Part shown: positions 47,156 to 47,203 of the stretch, in pieces
How the letters are laid out: the number at the start of each line of letters is the position of its first letter
Numbering within the stretch: the first letter of the stretch is position 1
Origin: a virus
Virus record (IMG/VR): IMGVR_UViG_3300028800_000064
Span: 33,241 to 97,240 of that record
Reading direction: 5' to 3' (one strand)
Length of the DNA stretch: 64,000 bases
Made by a program: the position numbers and the translations under genes
Notes under the pieces: generated by a model
Told to the model about the DNA's origin: nothing
The model's input: the letters and a program-made list of their open reading frames with translations, nothing else
Databases searched by the model: none

Positions 47156-47203
47156 GAGGATGACCACGAAAACGTTGCAAACCAAGCTCACAATGTCATT
47201 CTC
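47156..47203 (+). repeat. TIGR-like array unit 0 (in the 5' leader)
   Basis: The 48-nt unit is: stem GAGGATGAC, CA, spacer A cgaaaacgt, loop TGCAAACCA, spacer B agctcacaa, T, stem GTCATTCTC (9 bp, one G-U). It has exactly the geometry of the downstream units, although it is separated from them by the tas-like gene. Confidence 0.85.

What the first reader, a model, noticed from the sequence alone, without database searches (positions are those of the whole stretch)
47156..47203. A solitary array unit sits in the 5' leader of the tas-like gene
The unit at 47156-47203 has the full 48-nt geometry (9-bp stem, 9-nt spacers, TGCAAACCA loop) and lies between promoter and start codon. If the protein binds such units, it could regulate its own mRNA or cut the leader off during guide maturation.
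Basis: partly seen in the sequence, partly recalled or inferred. Interest (0 to 1): 0.75.

Follow-up and report, generated by a model that had tools for sequence, protein, structure and literature searches.

The report
Guide-RNA unit opening tas mRNA
A bacterial virus carries a TIGR-Tas RNA-guided system, and one of its 14 guide-RNA units is placed where the messenger RNA for the guide-binding protein is predicted to start, so making that guide and making the protein probably draw on the same RNA molecule.

Summary
Window 47156-47203 is a perfect 48-nt unit: a 9-bp stem, two 9-nt spacers, box motifs and the loop TGCAAACCA. A covariance model built only from 12 downstream units finds it at 32.9 bits (E 1e-5); the best non-unit match scores 12.1. 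The core pattern occurs 14 times in the 97-kb phage record, all on one strand within 2.3 kb, and never in the control.

The protein is a Tas protein. It matches solved TasR by sequence (E 2.5e-11) and over its full predicted fold (Z 20.4). The locus is therefore a stem-loop TIGR-Tas system, a published kind (Faure 2025).

The unit lies 23 nt before the start codon. A recurrent phage promoter layout puts the transcript start at about 47154, the unit's 5' end. Units close upstream of tas occur in about half of related stem-loop loci, so the position is family-typical. Most likely this is an ordinary guide co-transcribed with tas and cut from its mRNA. Autoregulation is plausible but unshown; no self-target was found.

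Following it up showed that many tas genes, including this one, carry a guide unit inside their 3' coding end. It also showed that spacers are replaced wholesale between phages while the scaffolds stay.

The parts
47156..47203 (+). U0, the solitary leader unit (9-bp stem, spacers CGAAAACGT / AGCTCACAA, loop TGCAAACCA)
   Evidence: pattern and stem scan; covariance model built without it, 32.9 bits, E 1.2e-5
47119..47147 (+). predicted tas promoter TTGACA-N17-TCTACT; predicted transcript start about 47154
   Evidence: same layout as other promoters of this phage, with GGAGGA 35-37 nt from the start of the -35 box; the -10 box alone is weak and was not reported by the generic scan
47079..47094 (.). 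AGTACGAAAGTACT-type palindrome (repressor-operator-like) between tas and the divergent gene; similar copies near 41945, 34055 and 54998
47217..47220 (+). GGAG ribosome-binding site of tas, 13 nt after the end of U0
47227..48258 (+). tas: 343 aa, RuvC-like N-terminal domain plus Nop domain (TasR-like, probably catalytically inactive)
   Evidence: PDB profile 9mty E 1.4e-85, single sequence E 2.5e-11, Foldseek E 1.7e-11, VIA Z 20.4 over residues 4-330
48215..48260 (+). U1, unit embedded in the tas 3' coding end (codons 330-343); the TAG stop lies in its 3' stem
   Evidence: 7/8 stem pairs; core pattern; weak in the covariance model, 15.3 bits
48267..48638 (+). U2-U8, first sub-array of seven units
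   Evidence: stem covariation
48655..49149 (+). accessory ORF, 164 aa, embedded between the sub-arrays; homologues at the same place in L094 and L095
   Evidence: phmmer E 1e-13 and 2e-11, tblastn
49157..49451 (+). U9-U13, second sub-array of five units

Best explanation
U0 is a genuine guide unit of a phage stem-loop TIGR-Tas system. It is transcribed as the very 5' end of the tas mRNA: promoter 47119-47147, predicted start about 47154, so transcription initiation itself would make the 5' end of the unit. Tas protein binds the unit through its box motifs, and a host RNase then cuts the linker before the tas ribosome-binding site, as reported for other stem-loop TIGR units. This yields one more guide RNP and a shortened but still translatable tas mRNA. 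The next unit, U1, overlaps the tas stop codon, so excising it should destroy the message. Guide maturation and Tas synthesis therefore compete for one RNA, which would act as a passive negative feedback. Shown here: the unit, its membership, the Tas identity, the promoter layout and the overlap. Taken from the literature: binding and Tas-dependent excision in other members. Inferred: the transcript start, processing in this phage, and the feedback.
For: Unit membership. Tas identity. TIGR stem-loop arrays bound and processed with Tas: PMC12045711. Promoter layout: five promoters of this phage carry GGAGGA 29-37 nt after the start of TTGACA, four of them at 35-37 nt; in the tas promoter GGAGGATGAC is the U0 5' stem. 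Relatives with a unit ending 14-32 nt before the tas start: L096, L107, L123, L153, L155, L166, L169. The relative L096 also has a lone unit just after TTGACA-17-TAGTAT, in front of the first ORF of its TIGR region. Units of relatives behave as guides: between L094 and L095, spacers are 33% identical, stems 94% and boxes 97%.
Against: No RNA data exist for this phage. The -10 box of the tas promoter is poor. The U0 stem is weaker than the other units folded (-10 versus -11 to -19 kcal/mol). Its loop departs from the array consensus by one base. No orthologue of U0 is available to show that its spacers turn over. L094 and L095 have no leader unit.
Confidence: 0.75

Rival explanations
1. U0 is a dedicated autoregulatory element: Tas binds it tightly, is not displaced, and blocks ribosome access to the start codon 23 nt downstream, holding Tas at the level set by free guides.
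For: The unit ends 13 nt before GGAG. The same close spacing (14-32 nt to the start codon) recurs in seven other stem-loop loci. It is solitary and at the transcript's predicted 5' end.
Against: In relatives the same position is usually held by the last unit of a multi-unit array. Close spacing is expected in compact phage genomes. L094 and L095 lack it.
Confidence: 0.2
2. U0 encodes a guide aimed at the phage's own tas promoter or another phage site, giving guided transcriptional autorepression in the manner of CreTA and related CRISPR ectopic repeats (PMC9458426).
For: Known precedent for ectopic CRISPR repeats. The Tas here is probably a non-cutting binder.
Against: The best target anywhere in the 97 kb is 14/18, as in shuffled spacers (null mean 13.9). 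There is no exact target in the viral contigs.
Confidence: 0.04
3. U0 is a decoy or anti-Tas RNA, like the solitary-repeat Racrs that phages use against CRISPR (PMC10651486).
For: It is a solitary unit under a phage promoter; precedent.
Against: It precedes the phage's own cognate tas, and its loop and box motifs fit the phage's own array, so it would sequester its own effector.
Confidence: 0.04
4. U0 is a decaying relic of a larger upstream array.
For: Upstream arrays are usual in relatives. The loop departs from consensus and the stem is the weakest in energy of the six units folded.
Against: All nine stem pairs, both box C motifs (CCA), both box D motifs (TG) and both 9-nt spacer lengths are intact.
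Confidence: 0.1

Closest known systems
TIGR-Tas stem-loop array systems (Faure et al. 2025, PMC12045711; the Peromyscus gut TasA locus)
   Same: Tandem stem-loop units with CCA/TG boxes, paired spacers within the reported 8-12 nt, sub-arrays around a Nop-domain protein, phage location
   Different: A lone unit at the predicted start of the tas mRNA, a unit overlapping the tas stop codon, and a conserved accessory ORF inside the array; none of these is described in the parts of the paper's main text read here (its supplement was not available)
TasR with predicted inactive RuvC domain (CPR clade in the same paper; TasR structure 9mty)
   Same: Full-length fold match including the RuvC-like domain; association with stem-loop arrays
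   Different: Carried by a phage; catalytic Asp not conserved in strand 1 of this Tas and its relatives (alignment inference)
TnpB-omegaRNA (PMC10278001)
   Same: Guide RNA generated from the effector's own mRNA
   Different: TnpB cuts the RNA with its own RuvC site and makes one guide; here there are many short units and Tas is reported not to be the processing nuclease
Ectopic CRISPR repeats: CreTA (PMC9458426) and Racr solitary repeats (PMC10651486)
   Same: Single unit outside the main array under its own promoter
   Different: Unrelated protein family; no self-target found here

Membership tests
TIGR-Tas system | Tas protein with Nop domain | tested here: met
   PDB profile search: TasR 9mty E 1.4e-85, TasH E 1.2e-35; single sequence E 2.5e-11; fold Z 20.4 to TasR, Z about 6 to Nop5
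TIGR-Tas system | array of units with two spacers of 8-12 nt between CCA (box C) and TG (box D) motifs | tested here: met
   14 units, all 9+9 nt
TIGR-Tas system, stem-loop type | palindromic stems in place of edge repeats | tested here: met
   9 pairs, 8 with changes on both sides, covariation score 0.74 against 0.24 shuffled
TIGR-Tas system | units transcribed and processed into Tas-bound RNAs | not testable with these tools
   needs RNA-seq or pull-down; shown for other members in PMC12045711
TasA (solo Nop, no nuclease domain) | no N-terminal nuclease-fold domain | tested here: not met
   model residues 4-330 align to TasR including its RuvC-like part
TasR active nuclease | RuvC catalytic acidic residues present | tested here: inconclusive
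   no Asp conserved in strand 1 among window, L094 and L096; residue-level superposition on 9mty not done
Self-targeting ectopic guide (CreTA-like) | spacers match the system's own promoter or genome | tested here: not met
   no match above shuffled spacers

The most novel reading that the evidence does not exclude
The tas message is built as a guide-or-protein switch: guide units sit at its predicted 5' end (U0) and inside its 3' coding end (U1), so Tas-dependent excision of guides disables the tas mRNA and sets Tas to guide stoichiometry. The same 3' overlap recurs in at least nine of sixteen stem-loop loci examined.
Probability: 0.3. Interest if true: 0.75.

Novelty: new member of a known kind. 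Interest (0 to 1): 0.52.

Why it matters
The biological role, regulation and spacer origin of TIGR-Tas systems are open questions according to the discovery paper. This locus shows guides physically shared with the effector's mRNA at both ends, which makes feedback control directly testable with one reporter construct. The comparison made on the way (L094 versus L095) shows spacers replaced in place while stems and boxes stay, which gives a concrete handle on how TIGR spacers change.

Tried and rejected
Self-target search for all 14 units in the 97-kb phage, in the geometry spacer A, 0-2 nt, reverse complement of spacer B: nothing above shuffled spacers. The geometry was derived here from the published 8-nt 3' overhangs.

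U0 target in viral contigs: 0 hits; reversed-order control: 1 hit.

Upstream ORF starting at the ATG inside U0 (47160): rejected, because GGAGG directly abuts it with no spacing.

Rfam: no family. Single-protein searches for close Tas relatives in viral contigs, an alignment search in genome contigs and a tblastn of plasmids found none. Naked-RNA folding of the whole leader is not unusual (z 0.07).

The L096 ORF before tas was first taken for a homologue of the accessory ORF; the profile search did not support this.

Full report
OBSERVATION. The core CCA-N9-TG-N4-CCA-N9-TG is found 14 times in the 97,240-bp virus record that holds the window, all on the + strand within 2.3 kb, with no hit on the other strand and none for the control pattern. 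In shuffled sequence the core is expected 0.19 times per 64 kb, and no shuffle gave a full 9-bp stem. A covariance model built only from the 12 downstream units U2-U13 finds U0 at 32.9 bits (E 1.2e-5), and the best non-unit match is 12.1 bits. The stems of those 12 units covary strongly: 8 of 9 pairs have changes on both sides, and the score is 0.74 against 0.24 in shuffles.

THE PROTEIN. The ORF 47227-48258 has no family at Pfam's cut-off and matches the PHROG annotated 'transposase' (E 2e-14). A profile of 36 homologues collected here finds the solved TasR (9mty, E 1.4e-85), TasH (E 1e-35) and IS110-type transposases in the PDB; the single sequence alone finds TasR at E 2.5e-11. An AlphaFold model (mean pLDDT 88.9) matches TasR over residues 4-330 (Z 20.4) and IS110 enzymes at Z about 16 (Foldseek). 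It therefore has a RuvC-like N-terminal domain plus a Nop domain, and is TasR-like rather than solo-Nop TasA. No Asp is conserved in its first strand among the window, L094 and L096, so I expect it to bind without cutting; that is an inference.

THE SYSTEM. The locus meets the published description of stem-loop TIGR arrays (PMC12045711). In that work Tas binds such units and cleavage falls in the linkers without harming the hairpin; for a dual-repeat system Tas was shown to be required for processing but was not the nuclease. Layout in the window: promoter, U0, tas (with U1 overlapping its end), U2-U8, accessory ORF (48655-49149), U9-U13. The accessory ORF has homologues at the same place in L094 and L095.

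THE LEADER. Other promoters of this phage share a layout: TTGACA, 17 nt, a -10 box, then GGAGGA 35-37 nt from the start of TTGACA and usually a start codon soon after. The tas promoter shares it (TTGACA at 47119, TCTACT at 47142, GGAGGATG at 47155), although its -10 box is weak and the generic scan misses it. By the usual spacing transcription should start at about 47154, so U0 would be the first 48-50 nt of the mRNA. The module's GGAGGATG forms the 5' stem arm of U0, while tas uses a second ribosome-binding site, GGAG at 47217, 13 nt after U0. Excising U0 would leave that site and the ORF intact.

RELATIVES. Pattern scans and an alignment search of viral contigs gave 65 Tas ORFs, some from contigs held twice. 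In the 16 stem-loop loci examined, at least 8 (window included) have a unit ending 14-32 nt before the tas start with the ribosome-binding site in the gap. These loci were found through their units, so frequencies are biased upwards, and start codons were chosen by a simple ribosome-binding-site rule. The position of U0 is thus typical; what is unusual is that it is alone. In L096 a lone unit also follows a TTGACA-17-TAGTAT promoter, there in front of another ORF. In L094 and L095 tas lies behind other genes and has no leader unit. So leader units follow the transcript and the array, not an obligatory tas switch.

UNITS INSIDE THE CODING SEQUENCE. U1 (48215-48260) encodes Tas residues 330-343 and holds the stop codon in its stem; residues 332-343 are the disordered tail of the model. 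U1 is weak in the covariance model (15.3 bits) but has the full core and 7/8 pairs. Units with at least 5 stem pairs inside the last 135 nt of tas occur in window, L012, L042, L094, L095, L106, L155, L166 and L169; about 0.003 would be expected by chance. Excision of such a unit must cut the stop codon or last codons off the message. This, more than U0, points to competition between making guides and making Tas.

SPACER REPLACEMENT. Between L094 and L095 (tas 88.7% identical in DNA), eight orthologous units have stems 94% identical, boxes and loop 97%, but spacers only 33%. The replacement follows the 9-nt spacer limits and includes the two units within tas. One unit keeps 16/18 spacer bases. 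Dual-repeat TIGR pairs show low spacer identity too, but unit orthology there is less certain. So units, including coding ones, evolve as guides.

TARGETS. No unit, U0 included, has a target in the phage genome above shuffled spacers, and U0 has none in viral contigs. Guided self-repression of tas is therefore unlikely; its real targets remain unknown.

VERDICT. The system is a new member of a known kind. The coupling of guide and message at both ends of tas is the novel and testable part.

Noticed in passing
L094 3960-6300 versus L095 3960-6300: Eight orthologous stem-loop units in two phages about 88% identical: stems 94%, boxes 97%, spacers 33% identical, with replacement confined to the 9+9 spacer bases; one unit keeps its spacers.
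   Followed up: partly
window 48215-48260; L012, L042, L094, L095, L106, L155, L166, L169: Guide units embedded in frame in the last ~135 nt of tas; in L094 and L095 the stop codon TAA lies inside the loop repeat TGTAATCCA. L034 and L044 (dual-repeat) also show several units in the tas 3' coding end.
   Followed up: partly
window 48655-49149: Accessory ORF of 164 aa between two sub-arrays, conserved in L094 and L095 at the same place; no match among annotated phages. The paper reports no clear partner of TasA except occasional ParB-like genes.
   Followed up: partly
window minus-strand promoters at 47077 and 55000, and near 41945; plus strand 35158; L172 7475: Recurrent phage promoter module TTGACA-N17-TATNCT-N-TGGAGGAT with AGTAC...GTACT palindromes nearby, probably repressor operators of one regulon.
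   Followed up: partly
L123 6432-6529: Two units lie inside the 5' coding region of tas and encode a repeated peptide (VDGEPIG) at the Tas N-terminus.
   Followed up: no
phage records (many mycobacteriophages, Arthrobacter phage Talia1610, Microcystis phage Mvi-JY20): Small Tas/Nop-like proteins annotated hypothetical or transposase; in the three loci checked no 9-9 nt unit pattern lies near them, so they may use other guide geometry or none.
   Followed up: no
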